Assembly: GCF_009834025.1 (NCBI RefSeq)
Contig: NZ_CP047156.1
Location: 1,674,001-1,738,000 of the forward strand
Reading direction: 5' to 3'
DNA length: 64,000 nt
Origin: Epidermidibacterium keratini
GTDB taxonomy: Bacteria; Actinomycetota; Actinomycetes; Mycobacteriales; Antricoccaceae
The notes beneath the pieces were generated by a model. The model was not told the origin of the DNA and did no database searches. It worked only from the letters and a program-made list of their open reading frames with translations. This document shows, piece by piece, positions 8,539 through 61,914 of the stretch. A program made the position numbers and the translations under genes. The first letter of the stretch is position 1; each line of letters opens with the position of its first letter.

Positions 8539-8551
8539 GCGGGCGCATGCC

Positions 8552-11380: not shown

Positions 11381-11394
11381 TCTACTACAACGTC

Positions 11395-11422
11395 TTGACG
11401 ATCTGACGGTAGTACGTAGACT
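11395..11422 (+). promoter_or_regulatory. Candidate promoter of the boxC operon
   Basis: TTGACG (11395-11400), 16 bp, TAGACT (11417-11422), about 72 bp before the boxC ATG. Flanking words CTACTACAACGTC and GACGGTAGTACGTAG form an imperfect inverted repeat around it, a plausible PaaX operator. Confidence 0.5.
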
Positions 11423-11494
11423 ATTGCACAACGTGAGAGCCCGTCCCTGGGATCGACCGCGATCTGCCCACGACCTTCGTTAGGGGTCAGCCCG

Positions 11495-13219: not shown

Positions 13220-13225
13220 GCGGCC

Positions 13226-39915: not shown

Positions 39916-41460
39916 CTAGCTGCGTTCTTTCAGCTGCGCCTTAGCGATCTTTCCGGCCGGCGTCATCGGCAGCTCGTCGACGAACACGATCTGGCGCGGC
40001 ACCTTGTAGTCGGCGAGCTCACCGCGGCAGAACTCGATCAGCTCATCTTCGCTGACCGTCGCGTTCGGCGTACGAATCACGAAGTAGCGTCCGATTTCGC
40101 CCATCACCGGGTCCGGAATCCCAATGCCGGCAGCCATCGAGACCTGCGGATGGCTCACCAGCAGGTTCTCCACCTCGACCGGATAGACGTTGTAGCCGCC
40201 CTGGACGAACATCTCCTTGCTGCGTCCGCGCAGCGCGATGTGCCCGTCTTCGGTCATCACCACCAGGTCGCCGGTGTTGAGCCAGCCGTCGTCGCCGAAC
40301 GCCTCTGCCGTCTGCTCGGGCAGCTGCCAGTAGCCATCGGCAATCGACGGCCCACGGAGCTGAAGCTGCCCGATTTCGCCTGGTACGACGTCGATCCCGG
40401 CTGGGTCGACGACGCGTGCCTCGATCCCAGCGAGGGGTACGCCGACGTACTCCGAGACCTTGTCGACCCCGTCGTCGCGCGCCGACATCACCGCCGCGCC
40501 AGAGCTTTCGGACAGTCCGTAGAGGTTCACCAGGCGTACGCCGCCAAACCCGGCGTCGATGTCGCGACACAACGTCGGGTCAGCGTTCGAGCCGCCAATG
40601 GTTCCCTGGATGACGCTGGAGACATTGCGTTGGGAGAAGTCCGGCACGTCGAGCATGAGCCGCCACATCGTCGGTACGCCGCCGAACCGCGTCGCGCCGT
40701 ACTTCTCGATCGCATCCAACGCCGACGTGGGAGTGAAGGCCGGCATCATCGTCAGCCCGCCACCGGTCACCAGCGAGGCGGTCAGCGAGCAGGTCATTCC
40801 GCCGACGTGGTTGAGCGGCATCAGGCTCACCATGTGGTCGTCAGGACCGTGCTCGGTGTGCTCGGCCTGTGCTCGCGCGGAGGCGAGCAGGCTCGCGTGG
40901 GTGAGGACGGCGCCCTTCGGCTGGCCGGTCGTTCCCGACGTGTAGAGGATCGCCGCCGGGCTCGCCGGATCAAGCGCGACCGGCGTGAAGTCGTCGGGAT
41001 CGCCTAGCAGGTCGGCAAAGCGCTGACCTTCCTCGCCCCCACCCAGGAAGAAGTAATGCGTCACCGACGGTGCGTCGAAGGTGCGGTAGAAGTCGATGAA
41101 GTCAAAGCCGTCGGCCTCGGCCGCACTCACCACGACCCGCGCGCCAGACTGCGCGAGCATGTAGTCGAGCTCGCGCTGCCGGTAGCGCACGTTGAGCGTC
41201 ACGACCGGGTAGCCCGCACGTGCGGCGCCGAAGAAGAACGCCAGCCACTCCACACTGTTGGGCGCCGCAATAGCCACCCGCTCCCCCGGCTCCAGACCAA
41301 GCTGCTGCAGCCCCGCGGCAACCGCGCGCGAGCGGCGATCCATCTCGGCATACGACACCTCGGTCATCGGCCCGTCTTCGGAGTCGGCACGCGCAAACAG
41401 CTTGTCGCCGTACGCCGCGGCCTGTTCTGTGAGTACGTCGTGGTAGGTCTGCGCGCTCAT
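39916..41460 (-). CDS. Acyl-CoA synthetase (AMP-dependent)
   Basis: 514 residues. Motifs AAILYTSGTTGQPKGAV, LYGLSESSGA, GYWQLPEQTAEAF, DGWLNTGDLVV, GRSKEMFVQGGYNVYP and the C-terminal Lys in TPAGKIAKAQ. The ATG overlaps the stop of the preceding ligase (41457-41460, ATGA), so the two ligases are translationally coupled. This second ligase differs in the acceptor region (SLMPLNHVGGMTCSLTASLV), which suggests a related but different acid. Substrate unknown. Confidence 0.9.
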   Translation of the reverse strand: MSAQTYHDVLTEQAAAYGDKLFARADSEDGPMTEVSYAEMDRRSRAVAAGLQQLGLEPGERVAIAAPNSVEWLAFFFGAARAGYPVVTLNVRYRQRELDYMLAQSGARVVVSAAEADGFDFIDFYRTFDAPSVTHYFFLGGGEEGQRFADLLGDPDDFTPVALDPASPAAILYTSGTTGQPKGAVLTHASLLASARAQAEHTEHGPDDHMVSLMPLNHVGGMTCSLTASLVTGGGLTMMPAFTPTSALDAIEKYGATRFGGVPTMWRLMLDVPDFSQRNVSSVIQGTIGGSNADPTLCRDIDAGFGGVRLVNLYGLSESSGAAVMSARDDGVDKVSEYVGVPLAGIEARVVDPAGIDVVPGEIGQLQLRGPSIADGYWQLPEQTAEAFGDDGWLNTGDLVVMTEDGHIALRGRSKEMFVQGGYNVYPVEVENLLVSHPQVSMAAGIGIPDPVMGEIGRYFVIRTPNATVSEDELIEFCRGELADYKVPRQIVFVDELPMTPAGKIAKAQLKERS

Positions 41461-43031
41461 CGCGACACCGCCTCTCCCTGACCGGCGAACCGTTCTCGCA
41501 AGGTCCGCTTCAGGATCTTGCCCGTCGCGTTGCGCGGCAGCTCATCGATGAACTCCACCGCCCTCGGGCTCTTGTAGTGCGCGAGCCGTTCGCGGGCGTA
41601 GTCGATCACCTCATCGCCGCTCAGCTGGGCGTTCGGCTTCGGGACGACAACCGCGACCACACTCTCGCCCCACTTCTCATCGGGTACGCCGATCACCGCC
41701 ACGTCGAGGATCGACTCGTGACGGTGCAGCACCTGCTCGACCTCGATCGGATACACGTTTTCGCCACCGGAGATGATCATGTCCTTCTTGCGGTCGACCA
41801 GCGTGTAGAAGCCGTCCTCATCGACCCTGGCGAGGTCACCGGAGTGAAACCACCCGCCACGTAGGGCTTCTTGCGTCGCCTCGGGCATCTCGAAGTAGCC
41901 GGCGAAGATGTTGTCGCCGCGCATCACCAGCTCGCCGATCTCCCCGACAGCCACGTCTTCGTCGAGCTCGTTGACCACCCGTGCGTCGGTCAGCAACGCC
42001 GGCTGGCCCACAGATCCGCGCCGCTCTACCGTGTCCTCCGGGCTGATCACCAGCGCACCCGCGCACGTCTCGGTCATCCCGAAGCCCTCAAAGAACATCC
42101 AGCCCTTGTTTTGGAAGAACTCGATCACCGTGAGCGGTGAGGGCGCGCCGCCGGCCATCCCAAACCGCATCGCCGACACGTCGTAGGAGTCGAAGTTCGG
42201 GACCGCCGTGATCGCCGCCCACATCGCCGGCACGAGGAACTGGACCGTCGCGCGGTTGTCGGCCATCGACTTCAGCGCGCCGGCGGGATCGAACGCCGGG
42301 AGTACGACGACCTTGCCGCCGAGGAATAGCAGCGGGAACGTGTGCACGTTGAGCCCGCCGACGTGAAAGAGCGGGCACGGCGTGGTGGTGACGTCGAGCT
42401 TGGAGATGCCCGGCGCCATGCCCATGATGTTGTAGTTGTTTGCCTCGATGTTGGCGTGCGTCAGCATCGCGCCCTTGGGCCGGCCGGTGGTGCCCGAGGT
42501 GTACATGATCATGCCGATGTCGGACTTCTCGACGTCGCGCTCGTCGTCTTCCGGTGACCCGGCGGCCATCAGCTCCTCGAAGTCGCGGACCTCGGTGCCC
42601 TCGATCGCCGGGAGCGGCGCGCCGCGCAGCTCGGTGATGATCGTCAGCGGGATGTCGACCCGCTCATCGGCGTACGCCGCCGCGACAAGCTCGGTCAGGT
42701 TTGCCGAAGCGATCACCGCCTTGGGCCGGCAGTCGCTGGCGATGAAGGCGACCTCGGGGCCGGCGAGCCGGAAGTTGACCGGGACGCTGATCGCGCCGAC
42801 CTTGGCAATCGCAAAAAGCGCCTCGAGGAACTCGATCGAGTTCGTCGACAGCACAATGACGCGGTCGCCACCGCCGATCCCGGCGTCCTCAAGCGAGCGG
42901 GCGAGCCTGTTGCTGCGCGCATTGAGGTCGGCATACGTCAGCTGCTGACCGGTGTCCTCACGCACCAACGCCGTACGGCGCGGGTTGATCGTGGCCTGCT
43001 TGTAGTTCCACTTGCCGATCCCGTTGTCCAT
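41457..43031 (-). CDS. Acyl-CoA synthetase (long-chain/FadD-like)
   Basis: 524 residues from the ATG at 43031; longer starts would run through the operator. Motifs GMIMYTSGTTGRPKGAM, GFGMTETCAGALV, GYFEMPEATQEAL, GGWFHSGDLARV, DRKKDMIISGGENVYP and Lys in NATGKILKR. The operator dyad at 43038-43051 lies only 6 bp upstream of the start codon, with no ribosome site, so the mRNA may be nearly leaderless. First gene of a three-gene operon (ligase, ligase, CoA-transferase). Confidence 0.9.
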   Translation of the reverse strand: MDNGIGKWNYKQATINPRRTALVREDTGQQLTYADLNARSNRLARSLEDAGIGGGDRVIVLSTNSIEFLEALFAIAKVGAISVPVNFRLAGPEVAFIASDCRPKAVIASANLTELVAAAYADERVDIPLTIITELRGAPLPAIEGTEVRDFEELMAAGSPEDDERDVEKSDIGMIMYTSGTTGRPKGAMLTHANIEANNYNIMGMAPGISKLDVTTTPCPLFHVGGLNVHTFPLLFLGGKVVVLPAFDPAGALKSMADNRATVQFLVPAMWAAITAVPNFDSYDVSAMRFGMAGGAPSPLTVIEFFQNKGWMFFEGFGMTETCAGALVISPEDTVERRGSVGQPALLTDARVVNELDEDVAVGEIGELVMRGDNIFAGYFEMPEATQEALRGGWFHSGDLARVDEDGFYTLVDRKKDMIISGGENVYPIEVEQVLHRHESILDVAVIGVPDEKWGESVVAVVVPKPNAQLSGDEVIDYARERLAHYKSPRAVEFIDELPRNATGKILKRTLRERFAGQGEAVSR

Positions 43032-43037
43032 GGGAGT

Positions 43038-43051
43038 TGACACTATTGTCA
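43038..43051. promoter_or_regulatory. TGACA-N4-TGTCA dyad, site 2
   Basis: TGACA-CTAT-TGTCA, perfect arms, between the FadD-like ligase and the divergent DyP peroxidase (context GTTGACACTATTGTCACG). Almost identical in context to site 1. Confidence 0.65.
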
Positions 43052-43125
43052 CGTCTGCGTTTGCGCTAGATGCGGGTCCGACTCCGGGGTGGGCAATCGC
43101 CCGGCTACCTGCAAGGATCGGGGCC

Positions 43126-44133
43126 ATGGTCCCTCAGACGATCGTCGAAGCGCCCGCCGTAGCCGCCACCTTCATGGTGCTGACCGTGCCCGAAGGCAAA
43201 CAAACCCAAGCGACCGAGGTCATCGGCAATCTGCCGTCGATCTTCCGCAGCGTGGAGTTCCGCGAACCTGAGAAGTCGCTCAACCTCGTCGTGGGGATCG
43301 GCTCGGACTTCTACGACCGCGTCTACGAGGGGCCGCGGCCGGCTCATCTGCACCCGTTCGAGGAGCTCAAGGGTGATCGGCATACCGCTCCCTCGACGCC
43401 GGGCGACCTGCTGCTGCACATTCGCGCCGTACGCCGCGACGTCATCTTCGAGCTCGCTGACCTGATCCTTCGCGAGTTCGGCGATGCGGTGGAGATCGCC
43501 GACAGCACCGACGGCTTCCGCTATTTCGATGACCGCGACCTGCTGGGCTTCGTCGACGGCAGTGAAAACCCGCGAGGGCAGTTCGCCGACGATGCCGTGC
43601 TCGTCGGCGATGCCGACCCGCACTTTGCCGGCAGCAGCTACGTCATCGTGCAGAAGTACCTGCACGACCTGGACGCGTGGCGCGCGCAGAGCGTCGAGGC
43701 TCAGGAGGACGCGATCGGGCGCACCAAGCTGGAAAACATCGAGTTTCCCGACGACAAGAAGGCGGCCGACTCGCACGTCAAGCTCAACACCATCCACGCG
43801 CCCGACGGTCGGCAGCTGAAGATCGTGCGCGACAACATGCCGTTCTCGGAGTTCAGCCCTAACGTCAAGGGCACCTACTTCATCGGGTACGCCGCCGATC
43901 CGGGCGTCACCGAGCAGATGCTGCGCCACATGTTCATCGGCAACCCGCCCGGCACCACCGACCGGATCCTGGACTTCTCGACGGCGAAGACCGGCTGTCT
44001 GTTCTTCGTGCCCACCCAGGACTTCCTGGACAACCAGCCCCTCAAGGGCAGCGGTGCGGGCTCCGGCGACTCGGGCACCAAGGCGACGACCGAAAAACCC
44101 GCGCAGGCGGCAAAGGCCGGCGACGCATCGTAG
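43126..44133 (+). CDS. DyP-type haem peroxidase
   Basis: 335 residues from the ATG at 43126 (AAGGA upstream). The signature GFVDGSENPRG gives Asp144; Arg235 and Asn237 (IVRDNMPF) complete the distal site and His217 (DSHVKL) is the proximal ligand. These spacings match those of Rhodococcus DypB (Asp153/His226/Arg244/Asn246). No Tat or Sec signal, so a cytoplasmic B-type enzyme oxidising dyes, phenols or porphyrins with H2O2. The 28-residue tail is Gly/Ser/Lys/Ala-rich and has no recognisable encapsulin-targeting peptide. Divergent from the FadD-like ligase. Confidence 0.93.
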   Translation: MVPQTIVEAPAVAATFMVLTVPEGKQTQATEVIGNLPSIFRSVEFREPEKSLNLVVGIGSDFYDRVYEGPRPAHLHPFEELKGDRHTAPSTPGDLLLHIRAVRRDVIFELADLILREFGDAVEIADSTDGFRYFDDRDLLGFVDGSENPRGQFADDAVLVGDADPHFAGSSYVIVQKYLHDLDAWRAQSVEAQEDAIGRTKLENIEFPDDKKAADSHVKLNTIHAPDGRQLKIVRDNMPFSEFSPNVKGTYFIGYAADPGVTEQMLRHMFIGNPPGTTDRILDFSTAKTGCLFFVPTQDFLDNQPLKGSGAGSGDSGTKATTEKPAQAAKAGDAS

Positions 44134-44164: not shown

Positions 44165-45310
44165 CTACGGGGTGAAGCCGTCGATGCGGCTGAGCACCTG
44201 CAGCATCGTCTCGTCGCTGCCGCCGCCGATCGAGCCGAGGCGCGTGTCGCGCACGTAGCGGGCCACCCAGAAGTCCTCCATGTAGCCCATGCCACCGTGG
44301 AACTGCATGCACCAGTCCCCGATCTCGCGGGCCAGCCGGGCCCCTTGCAGCTTGCTGATCGTGGCGTCGCGGGTGGTGTCCTCGCCGTTCATGAACTTCT
44401 CGGCCATGACGTAGGCGTGGGTGCGCACCAGCTCAAGCTGCGCCGATAGCTCGCTGAGCTTGAAGGCGATGTACTGGTTGGCGATCAGCGGCTTGCCGTT
44501 GACCACGCGGTCCTTGAGGTAGTCGCGCGTGCGATCGAGCGCACCCTGCATCGAGTTGAGCTTGCCGTAGGAGGCAAACATCCGCTCAACGACGAACTGC
44601 TGCATCTGCTGCTGGAACCCGCGCCCGACCTCACCGATCGTGTTGGAGACCGGAACGCGCACGTCGTCGAAGGTCAGCAGCGCGGTGTCTGAGCTGCGCA
44701 TGCCGTACTTGTCGAGCTTCTTGGCGACATCGAGGCCGGGGGTATCCCGCTCAACGATGATCTGCGACATCCCGCGATAGCCGCCCTCGTCGGAGGTTCG
44801 CGCAAGCAGGCACAGCCAGTCCGACTGCGTGCCGGAGGTGATGAATGTCTTGGAGCCGTTGATGACCCAGTCATCACCGTCGCGCACGGCACGCGTCTTC
44901 AGCGCCGCGACGTCTGAACCGGCATCGGGCTCGGTGACGGCGATCGAGGTGACCATCTCCCCGGCGATCGCCGGAGCGAGATACTTCTGCTTCAGCTCGT
45001 GCGATCCATAGCGATGCAGCGACGGCGTCGCCATCATCATCTGTACGCCGAACGCCATGGGTACGCCGCCGCAGCCCATCCGGCCGAGCTCCTCGGAGGC
45101 GATCATCGCAAAGAGGTGGTCGCCGCCCATGCCGCCGTACTCCGGGTCGTACTCGACCCCGAGAATGCCTAGCGCACCGGCCTTCTTGAAGATCTCGTGC
45201 GCCGGGAAGATGCCCTCGCGTTCCCAGTCATCGACGTACGGCGCGCACTCTTTGTCGACGAACTTGCGCACCGACTCGCGAAACGCCTCGTGCTCCGGGG
45301 TGAACTTCAC
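44165..45310 (-). CDS. Acyl-CoA dehydrogenase
   Basis: 381 residues, GTG start with AGGAG 5 nt upstream. FAD enzyme that introduces the alpha-beta double bond in acyl-CoA. Motifs: AITEPDAGSDVAALKTRA-type flavin segment (seen as IAVTEPDAGSDVAALKT), WVINGSKTFITSGTQSDWL, YGMRSSDTALLTFDDVRVP, and a C-terminal MQFHGGMGYMEDFWVARYVR region ahead of GGSDETMLQVLSR. Closest in pattern to short/branched-chain dehydrogenases. A TGACA/TGTCA-type dyad overlaps its -35, placing it in the same proposed regulon as the ligases and the carboxylase. Confidence 0.93.
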   Translation of the reverse strand: MKFTPEHEAFRESVRKFVDKECAPYVDDWEREGIFPAHEIFKKAGALGILGVEYDPEYGGMGGDHLFAMIASEELGRMGCGGVPMAFGVQMMMATPSLHRYGSHELKQKYLAPAIAGEMVTSIAVTEPDAGSDVAALKTRAVRDGDDWVINGSKTFITSGTQSDWLCLLARTSDEGGYRGMSQIIVERDTPGLDVAKKLDKYGMRSSDTALLTFDDVRVPVSNTIGEVGRGFQQQMQQFVVERMFASYGKLNSMQGALDRTRDYLKDRVVNGKPLIANQYIAFKLSELSAQLELVRTHAYVMAEKFMNGEDTTRDATISKLQGARLAREIGDWCMQFHGGMGYMEDFWVARYVRDTRLGSIGGGSDETMLQVLSRIDGFTP

Positions 45311-45320
45311 GGCGACTCCT

Positions 45321-45349
45321 CATAGCCAACAACATGACTCTCATGTCAA
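45321..45349 (-). promoter_or_regulatory. Promoter with TGACA-type dyad, site 3 (acyl-CoA dehydrogenase)
   Basis: Minus strand: -35 TTGACA (45349-45344), 17 bp, -10 GCTATG (45326-45321). The dyad 45335-45348 reads TGACT-CTCA-TGTCA on the plus strand, one arm base off perfect, and overlaps the -35, as at 51879. Confidence 0.5.
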
Positions 45350-45380
45350 GTTAGCACGGAGGGTCGCCGTGAAGGACCGC

Positions 45381-49546: not shown

Positions 49547-49604
49547 CCTGCGGTGGTTCCCGTAACGCTATTGGCCGATTAGCGTTACAGGTTCCACCGC
49601 AGAT
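49546..49604. repeat. Palindromic ACCTGCGGTGG element (full copy C)
   Basis: Outer arms ACCTGCGGTGG (49546-49556) and CCACCGCAGAT (49594-49604); inner arms CCCGTAACGCTA (49559-49570) and TAGCGTTACAGG (49580-49591), one mismatch, 9-nt loop. It fills the gap between the divergent arsR promoter and the acyl-CoA synthetase gene, ending 17 bp before its ATG. Confidence 0.88.
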
Positions 49605-49620: not shown

Positions 49621-51207
49621 ATGAAGCCCGACGTGTCCGACGTGTCCGCCCTCGACCTCAACCTCGCCGGACGCAGCGTCGTCGGCGACATGCTCACCCG
49701 CAGCGCCGAGCAGTTTCCCCACCGGATCGCGATCAAGGACCCGACCGGCGAGGTCAGCTATGCAGAGCTGGAGCGTACGGCGAACGCGATCGGGCGCGGG
49801 CTGCTCGGGCTTGGCGTGCAGCGTCAGGAGCCGGTCGGTTTCATCATGGGCAACTCGTGGAAGTTCATGGCCACCTACTACGGCTGCGCCAAGGCCGCGC
49901 TGATCTCGCTGCCCATCAACCTCGCGCAGGCCCCGGATGAGATCCGCTTCTGCCTCGCCGACGCCGAGGTCGGCACCATCGTGATCGACGCCGACTTCGT
50001 GCCGATTCTCGAGCAGATCATCGCCGAGCTGCCGCAGGTCACCCGGATCGTCGTACGCGGCGACGACCCCGCACAGATCGGCGGCATCGACACCGTCTCG
50101 TGGGACGAGCTCGCCGCCGGCGACGGCAGCCCGCTCGACGACGTGATCGTCGACGAGCGCGACATCCTGCAGTGCCTATATTCCAGCGGTACGACGTCGC
50201 GTCCCAAGGGCGTGCTGACCAGCCACCTGTCGGTCGTCATCGCCTGCCTCACCACTGCGATCACCGCCGGCCACAAGTGGGGCAACCAGTACTCGACCTT
50301 CGGCGTGATCGTGCCGATGTTTCACACGACGGCGCTCAACGTCCTGACGATGCCGACCCTCACCACCGGCGGGACCGTCGTCGCGCTGCCCGGCTTCGAG
50401 CCCGATGCGTTCATCGACGCGCTGGAAAACGACGGCATCACGCACATCATGCTGCTGCCGCACATGTACGAGCTGCTGCTGCAGCACCCACGCACCCAGG
50501 GCAAGACGTACGACGACGTCGAGTTTTGCATGTATGCGATGGCCCAGATGCCCGACGAGCGGATCAAGCGGATCAAAGCGCTCTTCCCGAACGGGCACGC
50601 GCTGCTCGGCTCGGGCATGACCGAGTGCGTACCGCCGACCGTCTTCCAGTTTCCCGAGCACGAGTTCACCGCGACCGCGTCGTGGGGCCCGCCGGTCTGC
50701 ACCGTCGACACGCGGATCGCCGACCCCGAGGGCAACATCCTGCCGCGGGGGCAGGTCGGCGAGATCGTCTACCGCGGCGCGCAGGTCATGGCCGGCTACT
50801 GGAACCGCGCCGAGACCAACGCCGAGGTGTTCCGCGGCGGCTGGCTGCGCACCGGCGACATCGGCTACAAGGACGACGAGGGCGTCATCTGGTTTACCGA
50901 CCGCAGCAAGGACATGATCAAGTCCGGCGGCGAAAACGTCTCCTCGATGGAGGTCGAGCGCACCCTGCTCGAGCACCCGCACATCGTCGACGTGGGCGTG
51001 ATCGGCGTACCGGATGACCGCTGGGGCGAGGCCGTGACCGCGTTCGTGGTCACCGACGGCTCGCCGGTCACCGAGGACGACGTGATCACGCATGCCAAGG
51101 AGCTGCTTGGCGGGTTCAAGGTGCCTAAGCGCGTCGAGTTTGTCGACGCCCTACCGAAGACGGCGACCGGCAAGGTGCAGAAGCACGAGCTGCGAAATCT
51201 CGCCTAG
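49621..51207 (+). CDS. Acyl-CoA synthetase (CaiC/crotonobetaine-ligase-like)
   Basis: 528 residues, ATG with GGGAG upstream. Motifs: QCLYSSGTTSRPKGVL, MTECVPPT, GYWNRAETNAEVF, GGWLRTGDIGY, DRSKDMIKSGGENVSSMEVE and Lys in TATGKVQKH. The pocket region VPMFHTTALNVLTMPTLTTG resembles ligases for small or polar acids. Convergent with the TetR gene and ending on a shared CTAG (51204-51207). By position it could activate the acid later carboxylated by the 51947-55502 enzyme. Confidence 0.9.
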   Translation: MKPDVSDVSALDLNLAGRSVVGDMLTRSAEQFPHRIAIKDPTGEVSYAELERTANAIGRGLLGLGVQRQEPVGFIMGNSWKFMATYYGCAKAALISLPINLAQAPDEIRFCLADAEVGTIVIDADFVPILEQIIAELPQVTRIVVRGDDPAQIGGIDTVSWDELAAGDGSPLDDVIVDERDILQCLYSSGTTSRPKGVLTSHLSVVIACLTTAITAGHKWGNQYSTFGVIVPMFHTTALNVLTMPTLTTGGTVVALPGFEPDAFIDALENDGITHIMLLPHMYELLLQHPRTQGKTYDDVEFCMYAMAQMPDERIKRIKALFPNGHALLGSGMTECVPPTVFQFPEHEFTATASWGPPVCTVDTRIADPEGNILPRGQVGEIVYRGAQVMAGYWNRAETNAEVFRGGWLRTGDIGYKDDEGVIWFTDRSKDMIKSGGENVSSMEVERTLLEHPHIVDVGVIGVPDDRWGEAVTAFVVTDGSPVTEDDVITHAKELLGGFKVPKRVEFVDALPKTATGKVQKHELRNLA

Positions 51208-51833
51208 CCCTGCAGGCCGATGCCGCGAGCCCAGATGCTGGTGAGCACGGGTACGGCGGCCTCGATCTCCTCCGGCGTTCGCCGCGGCACCCAGACCTGC
51301 GCGAACCGCTCGATCATCCCGCCGAGCACGTCCGCGGCGATCTCGGCGTCGATCTTCGGGTCGGCCTCACCGGAGGCCTGCAGGCGTCGGATGCCGGCCG
51401 CGTTGCGGTCGACGAAGCGCTTGCGGATCTCGTAGTTCATCGCGCCGGTGAAGTCGTCGTACGCCGAGACCTCGGCCATCACCGACATCATCCGCGCGTT
51501 GCGAGCGTAGGCCTCGACGTACTTGCGGTTGGCGATCTCGATCCGCTCGACCGGGTCGATCGTGCCCGAGCCCGATCGTGAGGTCTCGAACATCTCGTCG
51601 GTGACATCCTGCACCACCTCGCGGAAGATCTCGTCCTTGCTCTCGAAGTAGGTGTAGAAGGAGCCGTACGACGCGCCGGCGCGCTTGGCGATGTCGGCGA
51701 TGCGCGCGTCCTTGAAGCCGGCGTCCTCGAAGACTGCGCGGGCCGCGGAGACGATCGCCGCACGCTTGCGCCGGCCGCGCTCAGTCGTCGGCGCGGCGGC
51801 ATCGGCCGACTGGTCGGGCGTCGTCGCGGTCAT
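51204..51833 (-). CDS. TetR/AcrR-family regulator of the acyl-CoA regulon
   Basis: 209 residues. N-terminal HTH (about 20-68: RKRAAIVSAARAVFEDAGFK, IADIAKRAGASYGSFYTYFE), followed by a helical ligand domain (about 75-205). Divergent from the carboxylase operon with a perfect TGACA-N4-TGTCA dyad between the starts that overlaps the carboxylase -35. The same dyad occurs at 31559, 43038 and (one mismatch) 45335, all before acyl-CoA genes. I infer that this protein binds all four and is released by an acyl-CoA. Confidence 0.9.
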   Translation of the reverse strand: MTATTPDQSADAAAPTTERGRRKRAAIVSAARAVFEDAGFKDARIADIAKRAGASYGSFYTYFESKDEIFREVVQDVTDEMFETSRSGSGTIDPVERIEIANRKYVEAYARNARMMSVMAEVSAYDDFTGAMNYEIRKRFVDRNAAGIRRLQASGEADPKIDAEIAADVLGGMIERFAQVWVPRRTPEEIEAAVPVLTSIWARGIGLQG

Positions 51834-51878
51834 CGCGCACCCCTTTCTGCCTGGTCGTCGTTTGAGAATATCGGAAAC

Positions 51879-51907
51879 TTGACAAGGTTGTCATGTTTGG
51901 TGAGACT
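51879..51907 (+). promoter_or_regulatory. Carboxylase promoter with TGACA-N4-TGTCA dyad, site 4
   Basis: -35 TTGACA (51879-51884), 17 bp, -10 GAGACT (51902-51907). The dyad TGACA-AGGT-TGTCA (51880-51893) starts in the -35 and covers half of the spacer, so bound regulator would block RNA polymerase. Only 46 bp from the TetR start, so autoregulation is likely. Confidence 0.65.
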
Positions 51908-51946
51908 GCGAGTCGTCACTAGCGCCCAGTGCGAGAGGAGGCGTGG

Positions 51947-53539
<1,593 letters not shown>

Positions 53540-53546
53540 GCGCAAA

Positions 53547-55502
<1,956 letters not shown>

Positions 55503-55504
55503 AG

Positions 55505-57265
55505 ATGCGAACTTTGCGGGTGGCCAACTGCAGCGGGTTCTTCGGAGACCGCCTCAGCGCGGCGAAGGAGATGGTCACCGGCGGTGACATCGACGTCCTG
55601 ACCGGCGACTGGCTGGCCGAGCTGACCATGATCATCCTGCGGCGCCAGATGGCCAAGAACCCGGAGACCGGGTACGCCGGAACCTTCGTCAAGCAGCTCG
55701 AGGACGTGCTCGGCACCTGCCTGGAGAAGGGGATCAAGATCGTCTCCAACGCCGGCGGGCTCAACCCCGGCGGAGCCGCGCGGGCCGTCGAGAAGCTGGC
55801 CGGGCAGCTGGGCCTGCCGGTGCGGGTCGGCGTCGTGACCGGTGACGACATCCTGGCCCGGGTGCCCGAGCTAATCGAGCGCGGCGCGCTCACCCAGCTC
55901 GACACCGGCGAGCCGATCGACCTCGACGGTCGCACCCCGCTCGCCGCCAACGCCTACCTCGGCGGCTGGGGCATCACCGAATGCCTGAACCGGGGAGCCG
56001 ACGTCGTGGTGACCGGACGGGTCACCGACGCGGCAGTTGTCGTCGGGCCGGCCGCGTGGGCTTTCGACTGGGGCCGCGAGGACTTCGACAAACTCGCCGG
56101 CGCGGTCGTCGCCGGGCACGTCATCGAGTGTGGCGGGCAGGCGACCGGCGGCAACTTCTCCTTCTATGACGAGGTTTCCGGCATCGAGCGCGTCGGCTTC
56201 CCGCTCGCGGAGATCCGCGAAGACGGATCCAGCGTCATCACCAAGCATCGCGGCACCGGGGGCACAGTCAGCATCGACACCGTCAAGGCGCAGCTGCTCT
56301 ACGAGGTCGGCGGACCGCAGTACGCCAACCCGGACGTGACCGCCCTGCTGGACTCGATCTCACTGAGCAGCGACGGCGATGACCGCGTCGAGATCTCCGG
56401 CGTACGCGGCCAGGCGCCACCGCCGGGGCTGAAGGTCTCGATGGCCGTCGAGGGCGGCTATCGCAACCAGATGCTGCTCTGCCTGACCGGTGATGACCCC
56501 GAGGGCAAGGCCGACGTCGCGCTCCGCACGATCTGGGAGATGATCCCGGGCGGGCGTGAGGCGTTTGACCGGGTCGACGTTGAGCTGATCGGCCGTCCGG
56601 TCAGTGATCCGGAGAGCTTCGGCGCCGCGACGACACTGCTGCGGGTAGCGGTCGCCGGCAGCGACCAGAAGCTGGTGGGTCGCGCCTTCTCCGGCGCGGT
56701 CGTGCAGACCGGGCTGTCGAGCTACCCCGGCTTCTACGCCACCTCGCCACCGGGCAGCGGTACGGCGTACGAGACCTACATCCCTGCCGTCGTACCCGCC
56801 GACGAGGTGACCATGACGGCCGAGGTTGACGGCGAGACGATCGAGGTGCCCAACACCGGCTCGTCGGTGAGCGCGCCGCTCGATGCGCCGTCGTACGCCG
56901 ATGCTCCCGGCGCCGAGCTGCCCTGCGAGGCGATGCGCAAGGTCCCGCTCGGTGAGCTCGCTGGCGCGCGCTCGGGCGACAAGGGTGGTCACGCCAACCT
57001 CGGACTATGGGCTCGCAGCCAGGAGAACTTCGACTACCTGGACGGCGTACTGACCGTCGCGAAGCTTCGTGAGCTGATCCCCGGCACCCGCGAGCTGAAG
57101 ATCCAGCGGCACCGGCTGCCGAACCTGTGGGCGATCAACTTCGTCATCGAAGGGTTCCTCGGCGACGGGGTCTCGTCGTCGCTGCGCCTGGACGCGCAGG
57201 CCAAAGGTCTCGCCGAGTTTGCCCGCGCCCGGCACATCGACGTCCCGATGTCGCTGATGCGCTAG
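55505..57265 (+). CDS. AtuA-family protein (acyclic terpene utilisation type) with fused C-terminal domain
   Basis: 586 residues. Residues 1 to about 355 belong to the AtuA/DUF1446 family (ANCSGFFGDRLSAAKEMVTG; LTGDWLAELTMIILRRQMAK; IVSNAGGLNPGGAARAVEKL; VVVTGRVTDAAVVVGPAAWA; HVIECGGQATGGNFSFY). Residues about 475-586 (LGELAGARSGDKGGHANLGL, FVIEGFLGDGVSSSLRLDAQ) are the C-terminal AtuA-like domain that is a separate gene in some organisms. AtuA accompanies geranyl-CoA carboxylase in Pseudomonas; its reaction is not established. Third gene of the carboxylase operon. Confidence 0.92.
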   Translation: MRTLRVANCSGFFGDRLSAAKEMVTGGDIDVLTGDWLAELTMIILRRQMAKNPETGYAGTFVKQLEDVLGTCLEKGIKIVSNAGGLNPGGAARAVEKLAGQLGLPVRVGVVTGDDILARVPELIERGALTQLDTGEPIDLDGRTPLAANAYLGGWGITECLNRGADVVVTGRVTDAAVVVGPAAWAFDWGREDFDKLAGAVVAGHVIECGGQATGGNFSFYDEVSGIERVGFPLAEIREDGSSVITKHRGTGGTVSIDTVKAQLLYEVGGPQYANPDVTALLDSISLSSDGDDRVEISGVRGQAPPPGLKVSMAVEGGYRNQMLLCLTGDDPEGKADVALRTIWEMIPGGREAFDRVDVELIGRPVSDPESFGAATTLLRVAVAGSDQKLVGRAFSGAVVQTGLSSYPGFYATSPPGSGTAYETYIPAVVPADEVTMTAEVDGETIEVPNTGSSVSAPLDAPSYADAPGAELPCEAMRKVPLGELAGARSGDKGGHANLGLWARSQENFDYLDGVLTVAKLRELIPGTRELKIQRHRLPNLWAINFVIEGFLGDGVSSSLRLDAQAKGLAEFARARHIDVPMSLMR

Positions 57266-57357
57266 GCGCCGAGGTGGTTGCGCTGCGGCGGCAGAGTTGA
57301 GAGGTTGTGAGGACGGCGTCAGTCCCGGACGCCCGCCCCCACACGTGAGGTGCCCAC

Positions 57358-58881
57358 ATGGACTCGCAAACCGTCATCTTGCTCGTCGCGATCGTCTATC
57401 TGCTGATGATGCTCGCGGTCGGCGCCTGGGCCAACACCAAGATGAAGTCCTCCAAGGACTTCCTGGTAGCTGGACAGTCGCTCGGCTTCTTCGTCATGGC
57501 GATCGCGTCCTTCTCCTCCATCCAAAGCGGCTGGGGAATGGTCGGCTCGACCGGTACGACGTCCGCGTGGGGCGTCGGCGCCGTCGTGAGCGTCGCCGTC
57601 GTACCGCTCGGCTTCGCGCTCGCCTGGTTCCTACTCGGCGGGCGGCTGCGGCGAATCGCGCAGAAGCATGAGGTCTACAGCATCCCGGACATCGTGCGGG
57701 TGCGTTACAACAGCCGAGCCGCCCACATCTGGATGTCCATCGCGATGATTCTCGGCGCGATCGGCTACATGACCGCGCAGATCGTCGCGGCTGGCGTCAT
57801 CACCAGCCTGCTGCTGGGCATCCCCTTCATGACGGCCACTTGGATCGGCGGGCTGATCGTCGCGGCGTACACCATGGCCGGCGGCATGCTCGCCGCCGTC
57901 TGGACCGATCTGATCCAGGGCCTGGTGATGATCGGCATGTCGATCGCCATCTTCTTCATTGCGCTGTCGACCAGCGGCGGCTGGACCAACATGCTCGACA
58001 CGCTGGCCGGCGAGAGCACGAAGTTCGTCGCGCTCGAGGGCATCCAGCCTGCGGTGTGGATCGTCGCCAACGCGATCCTGTTGTGTTTCGGCATCATCGC
58101 CCAGCCGCAACTGATCCATAAGTTCCTGATGCTGAAGTCGGCCAAGGAGCTGAAGTGGGGCGCGACCGTCGCCGGCATCGGCTACGCGACAACCACTCTC
58201 TTCTCGCTCGGCGTCGGCCTCGCGATGCGCTCGGCCATCATCGAGGGTCGCGCAAACGAGCCCGACATCCTCGACGACACCGCCAACAGCTTCCTGTCGC
58301 AGTTCACCTCACCGGTGATCGCCGGCCTCGCCCTCGTGGCCCTGCTCGCGGCGATCATGTCCAGCGCATCGAGCTTCATCACGATCGGCGCCTCGGCGTT
58401 GACCCGCGACCTGATCGGGGCCCTGCGCGGCGGCACCTTGCGCCGCGAACTCACCTGGAACCGGCTCGCCAGCCTCGGTGTCGTGATGGCGTCGATCCTG
58501 ATCGGGCTCTATCTCAACCAGATCATCTACCTGCTCGGCGCGATCGGGTGGGCGGCGTTCGCGGCGGCGATCTTCGGGCCCGTCGTACTCGGCGTCTACT
58601 GGCGGCGCGGCACCGGCATCGCGGCGCTCGTCTCGGTCATCGTCGGACTCGCCCTCAACATCCTGCTGACGATCCTGACCTCGCAGGGCTTCTGGACTCC
58701 CCCGCCCACGTTCTTCGCCGGCCCGCTCGTGGTCACCGTCGGCGTACTCGTCTACGTCGCACTGTCCTACCTCACGTCGTCGCGGGCCGACCAGGAGCGC
58801 TTCGATGACCTCTACCCCGTCGATGAGGACGAGGCGGTCGTCGCCGGGAGTACGCCGCACCACGCGGAAGGAGCGCGCTAA
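57358..58881 (+). CDS. Sodium:solute symporter (SSS family)
   Basis: 507 residues with about 13 membrane spans, from TVILLVAIVYLLMMLAVGAW (5-24) to LVVTVGVLVYVALSYL near 470. SSS features: SKDFLVAGQSLGFFVMAIAS after TM1, GWGMVGSTGTTSAWGVG with the sodium-site Ser/Thr region, KHEVYSIPDIVRVRYNSRA, and the long span with SSASSFITIGASALTRDLIG. Likely imports an organic acid or amino-acid-like solute with Na+. It follows the AtuA gene by 92 bp and is followed by an overlapping small membrane protein, so it may be the uptake system for the pathway substrate. Confidence 0.92.
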   Translation: MDSQTVILLVAIVYLLMMLAVGAWANTKMKSSKDFLVAGQSLGFFVMAIASFSSIQSGWGMVGSTGTTSAWGVGAVVSVAVVPLGFALAWFLLGGRLRRIAQKHEVYSIPDIVRVRYNSRAAHIWMSIAMILGAIGYMTAQIVAAGVITSLLLGIPFMTATWIGGLIVAAYTMAGGMLAAVWTDLIQGLVMIGMSIAIFFIALSTSGGWTNMLDTLAGESTKFVALEGIQPAVWIVANAILLCFGIIAQPQLIHKFLMLKSAKELKWGATVAGIGYATTTLFSLGVGLAMRSAIIEGRANEPDILDDTANSFLSQFTSPVIAGLALVALLAAIMSSASSFITIGASALTRDLIGALRGGTLRRELTWNRLASLGVVMASILIGLYLNQIIYLLGAIGWAAFAAAIFGPVVLGVYWRRGTGIAALVSVIVGLALNILLTILTSQGFWTPPPTFFAGPLVVTVGVLVYVALSYLTSSRADQERFDDLYPVDEDEAVVAGSTPHHAEGAR

Positions 58882-59306
58882 TGCCCGCCCACAGCGAAGG
58901 ACAGGCCCGCGTCGACCGGATCGTGCTGGCCTTCACCGGGCTGCTCACCCTGACGATGGTCGGCATGCTCATCAACAGCCCCGGGCTCACCATGGTGCCG
59001 ATCCCGCTCATGGTCGCGTTGCTGACGTTGCTGGCCACCCTGCGTCCGGGCAATCACTGGCCCGCCCGCAATGTGCTGCTAGCCCAGGGAATCTTCCACC
59101 TGTGCTCGTTGGCGATCTGGCTGGTTGCGTGGCTCGCGGTCGGCAACAACGAGGTGACCATCGCCGGGATGACGACCAGCATGGGCATGCTCGTGGTCAT
59201 CGGCTGGCCGTTCTACACCATCACCAGCAGCCTGCTGTATGCCTACTGCTCGACGTACTCGAAGGCAATCGCCCAGGTCACCGCCGATGCCCCGGATCGA
59301 AACTGA
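58881..59306 (+). CDS. Small membrane protein, probable symporter partner
   Basis: 141 residues; its ATG overlaps the last base of the symporter stop codon (TAATG), indicating coupled translation. Four hydrophobic spans at about 12-30, 37-52, 66-86 and 95-118 (IVLAFTGLLTLTMVGMLI; LTMVPIPLMVALLTLLA; GIFHLCSLAIWLVAWLAVG; GMLVVIGWPFYTITSSLLYA). No known domain recognised. Small membrane partners accompany some SSS transporters, and that is the most economical reading. Confidence 0.75.
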   Translation: MPAHSEGQARVDRIVLAFTGLLTLTMVGMLINSPGLTMVPIPLMVALLTLLATLRPGNHWPARNVLLAQGIFHLCSLAIWLVAWLAVGNNEVTIAGMTTSMGMLVVIGWPFYTITSSLLYAYCSTYSKAIAQVTADAPDRN

Positions 59307-59401
59307 GTACGCCGAACTGATTGCGCGCAGTGCCATCAAGGGCGTTAGATGTTCCTGACCGGTAGCGACACGCCGGGCTGGAGAAAAATTCTGCGGGCAT
59401 C

Positions 59402-59429
59402 GGGAACCGCGCGGCGAGAAGCCACCGTC
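59402..59429 (+). promoter_or_regulatory. Possible ECF-sigma promoter upstream of the repeat protein gene
   Basis: GGGAAC-like box (GGGAACC at 59402-59408) and CGTC (59426-59429), 17-19 bp apart, resembling SigE/SigH-type promoters. About 70 bp of leader would precede the AGGAG and ATG at 59502. Weak evidence, from motif resemblance only. Confidence 0.25.
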
Positions 59430-59501
59430 AAGAGTTCGCACAACATGAAACGGCCTACAGCCGCTAACACACGAACTCACAACTTCCTATGAGGAGCAAT
59501 C

Positions 59502-60179
59502 ATGGATTACTACGACGTCGATGGAAACGGTGTTGCCGACTCGGTTGGTTATGACACCAACGGAGATGGCGTGAACGACGTGTACGAGGTCGACACCAAC
59601 GGCGACCAGTACGCCGACACCACCGTCACCGACTACAACCAGGACGGCTACGCCGACGGTTACTCCTCGGCCGACCCGTCGGCCCCCGGCGACAGCACCT
59701 ACTACGCAGGTGGCGAGACCACCGCTGGCGGCGGCACCACCTACGACAGCGACGGCGACGGCGTTGCCGACCAGGTCGGCTACGACACCAACGGCGACGG
59801 CATCGATGACGTCTACAACATCGACACCGACGGCGACCAGTACACCGACACCACCGTCACCGACTACAACCAGGACGGCTACGCCGACGACGGCTCGGCC
59901 ACTGTCTACTCCAACCAGTACGAGACCGCGACCGACAGCACCTACGGCTCGTCCGGCGCCACGACCGACTCGGGCTCGGCATCGGCCTCGTCGGCCAGCT
60001 CGGCCTCGTCCTCGGACACCACCTACTACGACTCCGACTACGACGGTGTGGCTGACTCGGTCGGCTACGACACCAACGGCGACGGCATCGACGATGTCTA
60101 CGTGATCGACACCGACGGCGACCAGTACGCGGACACCACGGTCACCGACTACAACCAGGACGGCTACGCCGACTCCTAA
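59502..60179 (+). CDS. Asp-rich protein of three 49-residue EF-hand-like repeats, no signal peptide
   Basis: 225 residues, ATG behind GAGGAG. Three nearly identical 49-residue units at residues 4-52, 81-129 and 176-224. Each carries four Asp loops: D-x-D-G-x-G-V-A-D, D-T-N-G-D-G-(V/I)-(N/D)-D, D-T-(N/D)-G-D-Q-Y-(A/T)-D and D-Y-N-Q-D-G-Y-A-D, i.e. 12 possible Ca2+ loops of the dockerin/thrombospondin-3 kind. Linkers are Gly/Thr/Ser-rich (53-80, 130-175). There is no signal peptide, transmembrane segment, sorting motif or Cys, and the protein is strongly acidic. It ends at a very strong terminator. I recognise no family; calcium binding is inferred from the loops. Confidence 0.85.
   Translation: MDYYDVDGNGVADSVGYDTNGDGVNDVYEVDTNGDQYADTTVTDYNQDGYADGYSSADPSAPGDSTYYAGGETTAGGGTTYDSDGDGVADQVGYDTNGDGIDDVYNIDTDGDQYTDTTVTDYNQDGYADDGSATVYSNQYETATDSTYGSSGATTDSGSASASSASSASSSDTTYYDSDYDGVADSVGYDTNGDGIDDVYVIDTDGDQYADTTVTDYNQDGYADS
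59511..60173. repeat. Three 147-bp coding repeats of the Asp-rich gene
   Basis: Units at 59511-59657, 59742-59888 and 60027-60173 are closely similar at the DNA level (for instance GACACCACCGTCACCGACTA occurs in units 1 and 2, with one change in unit 3). Spacers of 84 and 138 bp differ in sequence and length. Confidence 0.85.
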
Positions 60180-60190
60180 ACAAGCACCGC

Positions 60191-60239
60191 ACAACGGCGG
60201 GCCGAGACGACCAGATCGTCTCGGCCCGCTGTGCGTTGT
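60191..60239 (+). terminator. Very stable terminator after the Asp-rich repeat gene
   Basis: GCGGGCCGAGACGA (60197-60210) and TCGTCTCGGCCCGC (60216-60229) pair perfectly over 14 bp with a 5-nt loop; ACAACG (60191-60196) and CGTTGT (60234-60239) extend it beyond a small internal loop. Because it is symmetric it can also end the convergent gene at 60270. Confidence 0.9.
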
Positions 60240-60269
60240 GCGGCGTACTGGCGGGGTACGCCGAGCCGG

Positions 60270-61064
60270 TTAGGCGGCCGGCGGGAACTGGCCGGGGCGC
60301 CGCCCGCTGCCGGGCTTGCCGGCAAACGCCTGCGCGACCTCGAGGAACTCCTCGGCAAGCGGTCCGTCCGCTTCCAACGCGGTATCGGCGCGGTGGCGAC
60401 GCTGCGTCATCAGCAGCGCCATATCGAGCGCGCTGCCGCGGATCACGTCGGTCTCGGACTCGCCGAAGACCCAGGTGCCTCCGGACGGCGCGATCACCTC
60501 GATGCGGACGTCGGCATCGGGCACCGGCAGGTCGCGGTTGGCGTAGGCAAAGCCGCGGGCGCGGTAGCCGATGTGGAGCACGTGCCGCAGCCGGTCGGTC
60601 GGTTCGCGGCGTACGCCGAACGTATCGGCGATGTCCTGCCCGTGCGCCCAGTGCTCCATGATGCGGGCGGTGCAGGCGGACGCGACGCTCATCGGCGGTC
60701 CGTACCACTGGGTCCGAAGGCCCGCCGGAGCGCCGGTCATCGCGTCGTACATCGGCTGGCGCCCCGAGCGCCACAGCGCGAAGAGGTCGTCCGGGCGCAT
60801 CTGCACCAGCGGCCCGGCAACCGTGGTGGTGTAGTCCGGGTCGGCCTTGGCGACCTTCAGCGACTCCGCGAACGCGTCCGGGTCGACGATCGACTCGGTG
60901 ACCGCGCCGTCGAAGAACGCCAGGTGCGCCACCTGGTGCGCGACGGTCCAGCCCTCGGCGGGCGTATCTGCGCCCCAGTCCTCGTCCGAGCGCCCGGACA
61001 GCAGCTCGTCGACCGACTCCTGCTCGGCTTTCAGATCGGATACAAGCGCTGCGATATCGGCCAT
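60270..61064 (-). CDS. TIGR03084-family metal-binding protein (maleylpyruvate isomerase-like, DinB fold)
   Basis: 264 residues from the ATG at 61064; longer frames cross the divergent crotonase. The N-terminal four-helix DinB/MDMPI domain has the candidate metal ligands in WTVAHQVAHLAFFDG (His43 or so and His47) and in RIMEHWAHGQDIADTFG (about 134-150), with a C-terminal sheet domain (ADVRIEVIAPSGGTWVFG). Proteins of this fold in actinobacteria include mycothiol-dependent isomerases. In my recollection TIGR03084 genes recur near AtuA and acyl-CoA genes. Divergent from the crotonase across a 53-bp palindrome. Confidence 0.85.
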   Translation of the reverse strand: MADIAALVSDLKAEQESVDELLSGRSDEDWGADTPAEGWTVAHQVAHLAFFDGAVTESIVDPDAFAESLKVAKADPDYTTTVAGPLVQMRPDDLFALWRSGRQPMYDAMTGAPAGLRTQWYGPPMSVASACTARIMEHWAHGQDIADTFGVRREPTDRLRHVLHIGYRARGFAYANRDLPVPDADVRIEVIAPSGGTWVFGESETDVIRGSALDMALLMTQRRHRADTALEADGPLAEEFLEVAQAFAGKPGSGRRPGQFPPAA

Positions 61065-61081
61065 ACGGCGACTCCCGGGGC

Positions 61082-61134
61082 GGTGGTGGACATTGCTTCG
61101 ATACTCGCGAAGTATCGAGGCGAAGTCCACCACC
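61082..61134. promoter_or_regulatory. 53-bp nested palindrome in the TIGR03084/crotonase divergent promoter
   Basis: Outer arms GGTGGTGGAC (61082-61091) and GTCCACCACC (61125-61134) pair over 10 bp; inner arms CTTCG/CGAAG and CGATACT (61099-61105)/AGTATCG (61111-61117) also pair around CGCGA. It starts 18 bp from one start codon and ends 22 bp from the other, so it is well placed as an operator or a divergent-terminator-like structure. Confidence 0.7.
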
Positions 61135-61155
61135 ATCTGACTGCTAGGAGAACTC

Positions 61156-61914
61156 ATGCCCGAGCTCGTGCACCTCGAGGTCATCAACGGCGTCGCGACC
61201 ATCACCCTCGACTCGCAGGAAAACCGCAACGCGCTGTCCGAGCAGCTGATGAACGAGCTCATCGGACATCTGCAGACGTGCGAAAAGGATCCCGCCGTAC
61301 GCGTCGTCGTCATCACCCATGCCGGGCCGGTCTTCTGCTCCGGCGCAGACCTCAAGGCGGCATCGAGCGGCGGGATGAACACCGGCGCGCTGATGGTCAG
61401 CATGCTGCGCGCGATCGCGGCACTGCCCAAGCCGGTCATCGTCAAGGCCGCCGGCGCCGTGCGCGCGGGCGGGCTCGGCATCGTCGGCGCCGCCGACATC
61501 GCGCTGACGACCGAGGATCAGACGTTTGCCTTCACCGAGGCGCGGCTCGGGCTGGCGGCCGCGATCATCTCGCTGACCACCCTGCCGCGGATGGACGAGC
61601 GTACGGCGACCCGGTGGTATCTGACCGGCGAGACGTTTGACGGCAAGGCCGCCGCCGCGGCTGGCCTGGTCAGCGCCGCCGTACCCGCCAATCGGCTGGA
61701 TCTGGCGATGGCCGAGACGGTCGCCGGGCTGCTTCAGGCCTCGCCGCAGGGGCTGGCCGAGACCAAGGCGCTGCTGTCGCGCGGGCTGGTGCGTCACATC
61801 GACGAGTACGGCGAGCAGATGGTCGAGCTGTCGCAGCGGCTGTTTCGCAGCGAGGAGGCGCTCGAGGGCATGCGCGCGTTCAAGGAGAAGCGCAAGCCCT
61901 CCTGGACTGCGTAG
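61156..61914 (+). CDS. Enoyl-CoA hydratase-family protein, methylglutaconyl/isohexenylglutaconyl-hydratase-like
   Basis: 252 residues, ATG with AGGAG upstream. Crotonase fold with oxyanion loops VFCSGADLK (about 56-64) and VRAGGLGIVGAADIAL (about 103-118). The first catalytic Glu of mitochondrial ECH (in GGGCELA) is replaced here (GGLGIVG), while the second is kept (FTEARLG, about 130-136). This GGxG arrangement with one Glu is what I recall for LiuC/AtuE-type glutaconyl-CoA hydratases. Given the AtuA gene and the carboxylase nearby, hydration of a carboxylated branched enoyl-CoA is a reasonable inference. Confidence 0.85.
   Translation: MPELVHLEVINGVATITLDSQENRNALSEQLMNELIGHLQTCEKDPAVRVVVITHAGPVFCSGADLKAASSGGMNTGALMVSMLRAIAALPKPVIVKAAGAVRAGGLGIVGAADIALTTEDQTFAFTEARLGLAAAIISLTTLPRMDERTATRWYLTGETFDGKAAAAAGLVSAAVPANRLDLAMAETVAGLLQASPQGLAETKALLSRGLVRHIDEYGEQMVELSQRLFRSEEALEGMRAFKEKRKPSWTA

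What the first reader, a model, noticed from the sequence alone, without database searches (positions are those of the whole stretch)
51204..61914. AtuA-centred carboxylation pathway with its own sodium symporter
A TetR gene, biotin carboxylase subunits, an AtuA-family protein, an SSS transporter with a small partner, a TIGR03084 protein and a glutaconyl-hydratase-like crotonase lie together, with regulon-linked ligases and a dehydrogenase elsewhere in the window. AtuA has no established reaction. The logic is activation, desaturation, carboxylation, hydration of a branched acid, as in leucine or geraniol breakdown, but no HMG-CoA-lyase-like gene is visible. The transporter suggests a polar, charged substrate and not a terpene alcohol.
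Basis: partly seen in the sequence, partly recalled or inferred. Interest (0 to 1): 0.66.

Follow-up and report, generated by a model that had tools for sequence, protein, structure and literature searches.

The report
Acetate-lyase route for branched acids
An actinobacterium carries a widely conserved gene set that breaks down methyl-branched acids by adding CO2 and water and then cutting the chain; the poorly understood protein AtuA is very probably the cutting enzyme, while the neighbouring sodium symporter looks like a local bystander.

Summary
The gene list is right. The cluster is an actinobacterial version of the acyclic-terpene-utilisation (Atu) logic: ligase, acyl-CoA dehydrogenase, gamma-carboxylase, hydratase, AtuA. 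Its carboxylase is neither propionyl- nor methylcrotonyl-CoA carboxylase: it has the open pocket that defines geranyl-CoA carboxylase (Gly for Phe, no 3-residue insertion). Of 71 AtuA-linked beta subunits none has Phe; 30 of 30 leucine-type ones do. The same genome has a separate MCC operon and an HMG-CoA lyase. The 'missing' lyase is most probably AtuA itself: its AlphaFold model matches solved citramalate lyase CmlA (Z 31, 409 residues), and its C-terminal domain matches CmlB. The literature reports that AtuA-like ThnQS cleaves a 3-hydroxy-3-alkylglutaryl-CoA analogue. Two relatives hold the AtuA cluster but neither leucine-type carboxylase nor HMG-CoA lyase; four more lack the lyase. A palindromic operator with two exact copies in 4.02 Mb links TetR/carboxylase with the acyl-CoA dehydrogenase at 44165-45310 and is conserved in relatives. 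The symporter and its partner occur at 0 of 110 other AtuA loci, so the inferred polar imported substrate is not supported. New variant of a known kind; AtuA-as-lyase is directly testable.

The parts
51204..51833 (-). TetR-family repressor of the pathway (68-71% identical orthologues beside the same carboxylase in three relatives)
51876..51897 (+). palindromic operator AACTTGACAAGGTTGTCATGTT between TetR and the carboxylase, overlapping a TTGACA -35-like hexamer
   Evidence: conserved in G002, G003, G004
51929..53539 (+). gamma-carboxylase carboxyltransferase beta subunit; Gly164 at the GCC Gly162 / MCC Phe191 position, no 3-residue insertion (likely true start ATG 51947)
53547..55502 (+). carboxylase alpha subunit: biotin carboxylase, MCC-type BT domain, BCCP
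55505..57265 (+). AtuA, proposed acetate-releasing 3-hydroxy-3-alkylglutaryl-CoA lyase; N-domain = CmlA fold, C-terminal domain (about 56921-57262) = CmlB fold
61156..61914 (+). crotonase, proposed 3-alkylglutaconyl-CoA hydratase
   Evidence: conserved in 84 of 110 AtuA loci
60270..61064 (-). TIGR03084 protein, DinB/MDMPI-type metal site (His52, Glu142, His146 invariant); role unknown
49621..51207 (+). acyl-CoA ligase, proposed activation step; 85-86% orthologue beside TetR in G002 and G004
44165..45310 (-). acyl-CoA dehydrogenase, proposed desaturation step; regulon member
45331..45352 (-). second copy of the TetR operator, 20 bases upstream of the dehydrogenase: AACTTGACATGAGAGTCATGTT
41457..43127 (-). 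acyl-CoA ligase; a gene of this family directly follows the dehydrogenase orthologue in G004, possible further activation enzyme
57358..58881 (+). SSS sodium/solute symporter, neighbour only: not conserved with AtuA
58881..59306 (+). small membrane partner of the symporter, travels with it (57% orthologue next to SSS in G003), not with AtuA

Best explanation
The cluster encodes a TetR-repressed catabolic route for 3-methyl-branched (beta-blocked) acyl-CoAs larger than 3-methylcrotonyl-CoA. An acyl-CoA ligase (49621-51207) activates the acid, the regulon dehydrogenase (44165-45310) makes the alpha,beta-unsaturated acyl-CoA, the open-pocket biotin carboxylase (51929-55502) carboxylates the gamma-methyl carbon, the crotonase (61156-61914) hydrates the 3-alkylglutaconyl-CoA to a tertiary 3-hydroxy-3-alkylglutaryl-CoA, and AtuA (55505-57265) cleaves this to acetate and a 3-oxoacyl-CoA that enters thiolysis. 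Shown by sequence and structure: gene content, carboxylase lineage and pocket type, shared operator, fold of AtuA. Inferred: the order of steps, the exact substrate, and the AtuA reaction in this organism.
For: Carboxylase: N-terminal helix and gamma-carboxylase lineage, ungapped at the pocket with GCC, Gly where MCC has Phe (criteria and mutants in PMC4673880); 71 AtuA-linked beta subunits have Gly 63, Ser 5, Ala 3, Phe 0, against Phe plus insertion in 30 of 30 leucine-type paralogues. A separate MCC operon is at 1.55 Mb. AtuA: model pLDDT 89; Foldseek best hit 9evf_A citramalate lyase-ADP-pyruvate E 8.5e-20, VIA Z 31.0 over 409 residues with the next row at 9.1; C-domain on 9evf_B; weak profile match to the same chain, E 0.0034. 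[quoted passage not shown] Genomics: of 110 AtuA loci 79 have CTbeta, 84 crotonase, 86 dehydrogenase, 0 HMG-CoA lyase; G005 and G196 have the AtuA cluster, one gamma-type CTbeta and no HMG-CoA lyase, and G051, G089, G108, G173 also lack the lyase. Regulon.
Against: The fold match to CmlA is at 15-16% identity, so substrate and even reaction could differ. The ThnQS result is cited in the review as unpublished. LiuE (HMG-CoA lyase) of P. aeruginosa was published as serving both leucine and acyclic-terpene catabolism (title of the work cited in PMC12016498), and this genome has an HMG-CoA lyase. Fifteen of 88 long AtuA loci have no CTbeta nearby, so AtuA also acts elsewhere. No gene names the substrate.
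Confidence: 0.72

Rival explanations
1. HMG-CoA lyase encoded elsewhere (958 kb) cleaves the 3-hydroxy-3-alkylglutaryl-CoA, as proposed for LiuE in P. aeruginosa, and AtuA has another, accessory role.
For: A bona fide HMG-CoA lyase is in the genome (NF004283, 321 bits against a cut-off of 246); LiuE is described as involved in acyclic terpene catabolism (work cited in PMC12016498).
Against: Six genomes with an AtuA-CTbeta cluster have no HMG-CoA lyase match at 1e-20, three of them single-contig assemblies; no HMG-CoA lyase at any of 110 AtuA loci; AtuA has a lyase fold.
Confidence: 0.15
2. One reading: the pathway serves a polar, charged acid imported by its own SSS symporter.
For: SSS and partner are directly downstream of AtuA on the same strand, 92 bases away.
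Against: 0 of 110 other AtuA loci carry either gene. G003 has both a complete AtuA cluster and the 82% SSS orthologue on a different contig, next to its small partner. The carboxylase pocket is of the large hydrophobic GCC type. No shared operator in front of SSS was found.
Confidence: 0.08
3. The carboxylase is an ordinary leucine MCC or propionyl-CoA carboxylase and the cluster a duplicate of leucine catabolism.
For: Overall similarity to MCC beta (539 bits) is as high as to GCC beta (517 bits).
Against: Pocket residue and insertion are GCC-type; the genome has a separate MCC-type paralogue, 48% identical, with Phe and insertion in its own operon with a dehydrogenase; the PCC-type paralogues are only 28-32% identical.
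Confidence: 0.03

Closest known systems
Acyclic terpene utilisation (Atu) pathway of Pseudomonas (atuABCDEFGH, atuR)
   Same: AtuA, two-subunit GCC-type carboxylase, crotonase, dehydrogenase, acyl-CoA ligase, TetR regulator next to the operon
   Different: beta subunit forms its own GCC-pocket subfamily; dehydrogenase placed 7 kb away but under the same operator; extra TIGR03084; no terpene alcohol oxidation genes identified; substrate unknown
Citramalate lyase CmlAB (PDB 9erq, 9evf)
   Same: whole-length fold of the AtuA N-domain (Z 31); C-terminal domain corresponds to the 105-residue B subunit; shared AGG, GR..D and EC sequence motifs
   Different: 15-16% identity; two separate subunits there, one fused chain here; substrate there is a free C5 diacid, here probably a CoA ester
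ThnQS, AtuA-like lyase of anaerobic naphthalene degradation
   Same: family name and proposed chemistry: cleavage next to a tertiary hydroxyl carbon of a 3-hydroxyglutaryl-CoA-type compound, giving a 3-oxoacyl-CoA
   Different: cyclic substrate in a sulfate reducer; two genes; no carboxylase step
Leucine/isovalerate (Liu) pathway with MCC and HMG-CoA lyase
   Same: same reaction logic of gamma-carboxylation, hydration, lysis
   Different: closed Phe pocket, TIM-barrel lyase, found in a different operon of this very genome

Membership tests
Geranyl-CoA-carboxylase-type (GCC) beta subunit | Gly in place of MCC Phe191 in the pocket | tested here: met
   Gly164, aligned without gaps to 5ikl
Geranyl-CoA-carboxylase-type (GCC) beta subunit | absence of the 3-residue MCC insertion before that residue | tested here: met
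Geranyl-CoA-carboxylase-type (GCC) beta subunit | activity with geranyl-CoA | not testable with these tools
   needs an assay
Methylcrotonyl-CoA carboxylase | Phe and 3-residue insertion in beta subunit | tested here: not met
   the genome's own MCC paralogue meets it
Propionyl-CoA carboxylase | no extended N-terminal helix; PCC lineage | tested here: not met
   query residues 9-40 align with MCC/GCC N-terminus; PCC hits 220-237 bits against 517-539
AtuA family (PF07287 + PF23544) | both domains above gathering score | tested here: met
   525.7 against 22.8 and 65.0 against 27 bits
Citramalate-lyase (CmlAB) fold family | fold match over the whole N-domain, well above unrelated rows | tested here: met
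   Z 31.0, 409 aligned, next 9.1; C-domain to 9evf_B, prob 1.00
Citramalate-lyase (CmlAB) fold family | conserved ADP and substrate contacts | not tested
   coordinates of 9evf not available to the scripts
Atu pathway | AtuA, GCC-type carboxylase, crotonase and dehydrogenase encoded and regulated together | tested here: met
Atu pathway | growth on acyclic terpenoids | not testable with these tools
   needs culture
Symporter-coupled Atu cluster | SSS and small partner conserved with AtuA in other genomes | tested here: not met
   0 of 110 loci; orthologues elsewhere

The most novel reading that the evidence does not exclude
AtuA is a fused CmlA-CmlB, nucleotide-using lyase: it activates the free carboxylate installed by the carboxylase (as suggested by the ADP-pyruvate complex of the solved relative), breaks the C-C bond next to the tertiary hydroxyl and releases acetate. 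It would be a third kind of 3-hydroxyglutaryl-CoA lyase, unrelated to the TIM-barrel HMG-CoA lyase, used across actinobacteria, sulfate reducers and other phyla for branched acids. TIGR03084 would act as the metal- and thiol-dependent cis/trans isomerase that supplies the cis-enoyl-CoA needed by GCC-type carboxylases.
Probability: 0.25. Interest if true: 0.75.

Novelty: new variant of a known kind. Interest (0 to 1): 0.5.

Why it matters
Which enzyme performs the lyase step of acyclic-terpene and related branched-acid degradation has been contested between AtuA and LiuE. The combination found here (fold match to a solved citramalate lyase, strict pairing of AtuA with open-pocket carboxylases, and genomes with the AtuA cluster but no HMG-CoA lyase) points to AtuA and names genomes in which it can be tested cleanly. 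It also gives a simple rule for annotation: a gamma-carboxylase next to AtuA is not MCC.

Tried and rejected
Single-protein scan of genome contigs with AtuA gave no relatives because its patterns were too specific; the alignment-based scan worked. TIGR03084 has no PDB sequence relative at E up to 1. Paper searches for TIGR03084 and DUF4387/CmlA gave nothing usable; no paper on 9erq/9evf is in the library. Ordinary MCC and PCC identities were considered and rejected. G051 alone was not taken as proof that HMG-CoA lyase is dispensable, because it holds several other HMGL-like proteins; G005 has only two, which by sequence and context look like 2-isopropylmalate synthase and a citramalate-synthase-like protein (these two were not run against family models). 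G146 was left out because no carboxylase was seen at its AtuA locus. The promoter/terminator scan was near the chance level.
Full report
What is there. The window lies at 1674001-1738000 of a single-contig 4.02 Mb genome. From 49.6 to 61.9 kb: acyl-CoA ligase, divergent TetR, carboxyltransferase beta, biotin carboxylase-BT-BCCP alpha, AtuA with its C-terminal ferredoxin-like domain, SSS symporter, small membrane protein, an Asp-repeat protein, TIGR03084 (reverse strand) and a crotonase. An acyl-CoA dehydrogenase lies at 44165-45310 with further ligases beside it.

Not an ordinary carboxylase. Jurado and colleagues (PMC4673880) separate geranyl-CoA carboxylase (GCC) from methylcrotonyl-CoA carboxylase (MCC) by a pocket Gly against Phe and a 3-residue insertion before it, and both from propionyl-CoA carboxylase by an N-terminal helix. 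The window beta subunit aligns over the N-terminal helix with both, carries Gly164 at the diagnostic position and lacks the insertion. I extended the test. Of 71 AtuA-linked beta subunits, 63 have Gly, 5 Ser, 3 Ala and none Phe (67 without the insertion, 4 with it); of 30 leucine-type paralogues from the same set of relatives, 30 have Phe plus insertion. The two groups are also separated by overall identity: 74-100% against 46-52% to this genome's MCC. The genome's own MCC, at 1.55 Mb in an operon with TetR, alpha subunit and dehydrogenase, has the MCC signature DREHFGRIF. The pathway carboxylase is therefore a GCC-type, open-pocket enzyme; its true substrate is not shown.

AtuA is most likely the missing lyase. 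A profile of 14 AtuA proteins has a weak PDB match to 9erq/9evf, named 'AtuA family protein, citramalate lyase subunit A' (E 0.0034). The AlphaFold model (32 sequences, pLDDT 89, pTM 0.89) gives 9evf_A as the outstanding fold match: Foldseek E 8.5e-20, VIA-align Z 31.0 over 409 residues with the next entry at 9.1. The separate 105-residue B subunit of that complex also matches (TM 0.69 on the target, probability 1.00), as expected if AtuA is a fusion of the two subunits. In the profile alignment the shared positions include AGG, GR..D and EC, which are invariant or nearly so in 32 AtuA sequences. [quoted passage not shown] The chemistry fits exactly the product of gamma-carboxylation and hydration: a free carboxymethyl arm next to a tertiary hydroxyl carbon.

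Is HMG-CoA lyase needed? This genome has one, isolated at 958 kb. In 110 AtuA loci none lies nearby. Six genomes with AtuA next to this carboxylase have no HMG-CoA lyase match at 1e-20 (G005, G051, G089, G108, G173, G196). G005 (one contig, 99% complete) and G196 (draft, 96%) also have only one gamma-type beta subunit, the AtuA-linked one. So the route exists without the Liu pathway. The sample is moderate and drafts can miss genes.

Conservation. In 110 AtuA loci (80 from named genomes closest to this AtuA, the rest from relatives), 79 carry the beta subunit, 84 a crotonase, 86 an acyl-CoA dehydrogenase and 26 TIGR03084. Among the 88 loci of at least 14 kb, TIGR03084 is at 22 of 73 with and 0 of 15 without the carboxylase. 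The set spans Mycobacterium, Nocardia, Streptosporangium, Acidimicrobiia, Desulfobacterales and others. Because the 80 are the best matches to this AtuA, the counts describe this subfamily and not all AtuA proteins.

Regulon. A palindrome, AACTTGACAAGGTTGTCATGTT, lies between TetR and the carboxylase, and AACTTGACATGAGAGTCATGTT precedes the dehydrogenase. Chance expectation in the window is 0.01 at up to 3 mismatches; in the whole genome these are the only two exact copies. The site is conserved beside TetR in G002, G003 and G004 and precedes the 80-81% dehydrogenase orthologue in G003 and G004. In G196 a 60% relative of the dehydrogenase sits inside the AtuA cluster itself. A related palindrome (AAGTTGATRCCANYGTCAACTT) precedes TIGR03084 in G002 and G003. 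That TetR binds these sites is inferred.

The symporter. Neither the symporter nor its small partner occurs at any of the 110 other AtuA loci. Their orthologues form a pair in G003, on another contig than that genome's AtuA cluster; G001 also has the symporter away from AtuA. The pair is a local neighbour, so the argument for a polar, charged substrate loses its basis. The open hydrophobic pocket argues for a larger branched acyl chain, including terpenoid acids, but does not prove one.

How it most likely works. Ligase: acid to acyl-CoA (inferred). Dehydrogenase: alpha,beta-desaturation (inferred; regulon shown by sequence). Carboxylase: carboxylation of the gamma carbon (lineage and pocket shown). 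Crotonase: hydration (family shown). AtuA: cleavage to acetate and 3-oxoacyl-CoA (fold shown, reaction inferred). Thiolase: from elsewhere in the genome (assumed). TIGR03084 keeps an invariant His52, Glu142, His146 set, consistent with the DinB/maleylpyruvate-isomerase metal site; a cis/trans isomerase role is speculation, and its presence in Desulfobacterales, which as far as I know lack mycothiol, argues against a strictly mycothiol-dependent one.

Verdict.

Noticed in passing
window 7042-15818: Aerobic benzoyl-CoA epoxidation cluster: BoxB (766 bits), BoxC (863 bits) and a benzoate-CoA ligase; separate from the AtuA regulon.
   Followed up: partly
window 59502-60179: 225-residue protein made of repeated DTNGDGxxDxxY / DYNQDGYAD acidic calcium-binding-like units between the symporter pair and TIGR03084; only a sub-threshold CHU_C match.
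   Followed up: no
G000 561403-563142 (locus L009): Second AtuA paralogue (about 42% identical) directly next to an amidase-like gene and without carboxylase: AtuA proteins in another context.
   Followed up: partly
G000 858433-858454 (locus L144 about 6434): Operator-like palindrome with one mismatch (AACTTGACACTCGAGTCAAGTT) in front of a crotonase and two pimeloyl-CoA-dehydrogenase-like genes: possible third regulon member.
   Followed up: partly
window 61098-61118 and 49563-49587: Two further palindromes, TCGATACTCGCGAAGTATCGA between TIGR03084 and the crotonase and TAACGCTATTGGCCGATTAGCGTTA before the ligase; not the TetR motif.
   Followed up: no
L015:15298-16149, L017:14802-15794: Conserved protein of about 285 residues beside TetR in three relatives, absent at that place in the window; the G003 copy has no Pfam match.
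   Followed up: no
L055, L064, L066, L100: Desulfobacterales and Dehalococcoidia AtuA clusters carry a beta subunit that keeps the 3-residue insertion but has Gly instead of Phe: an intermediate pocket type.
   Followed up: partly
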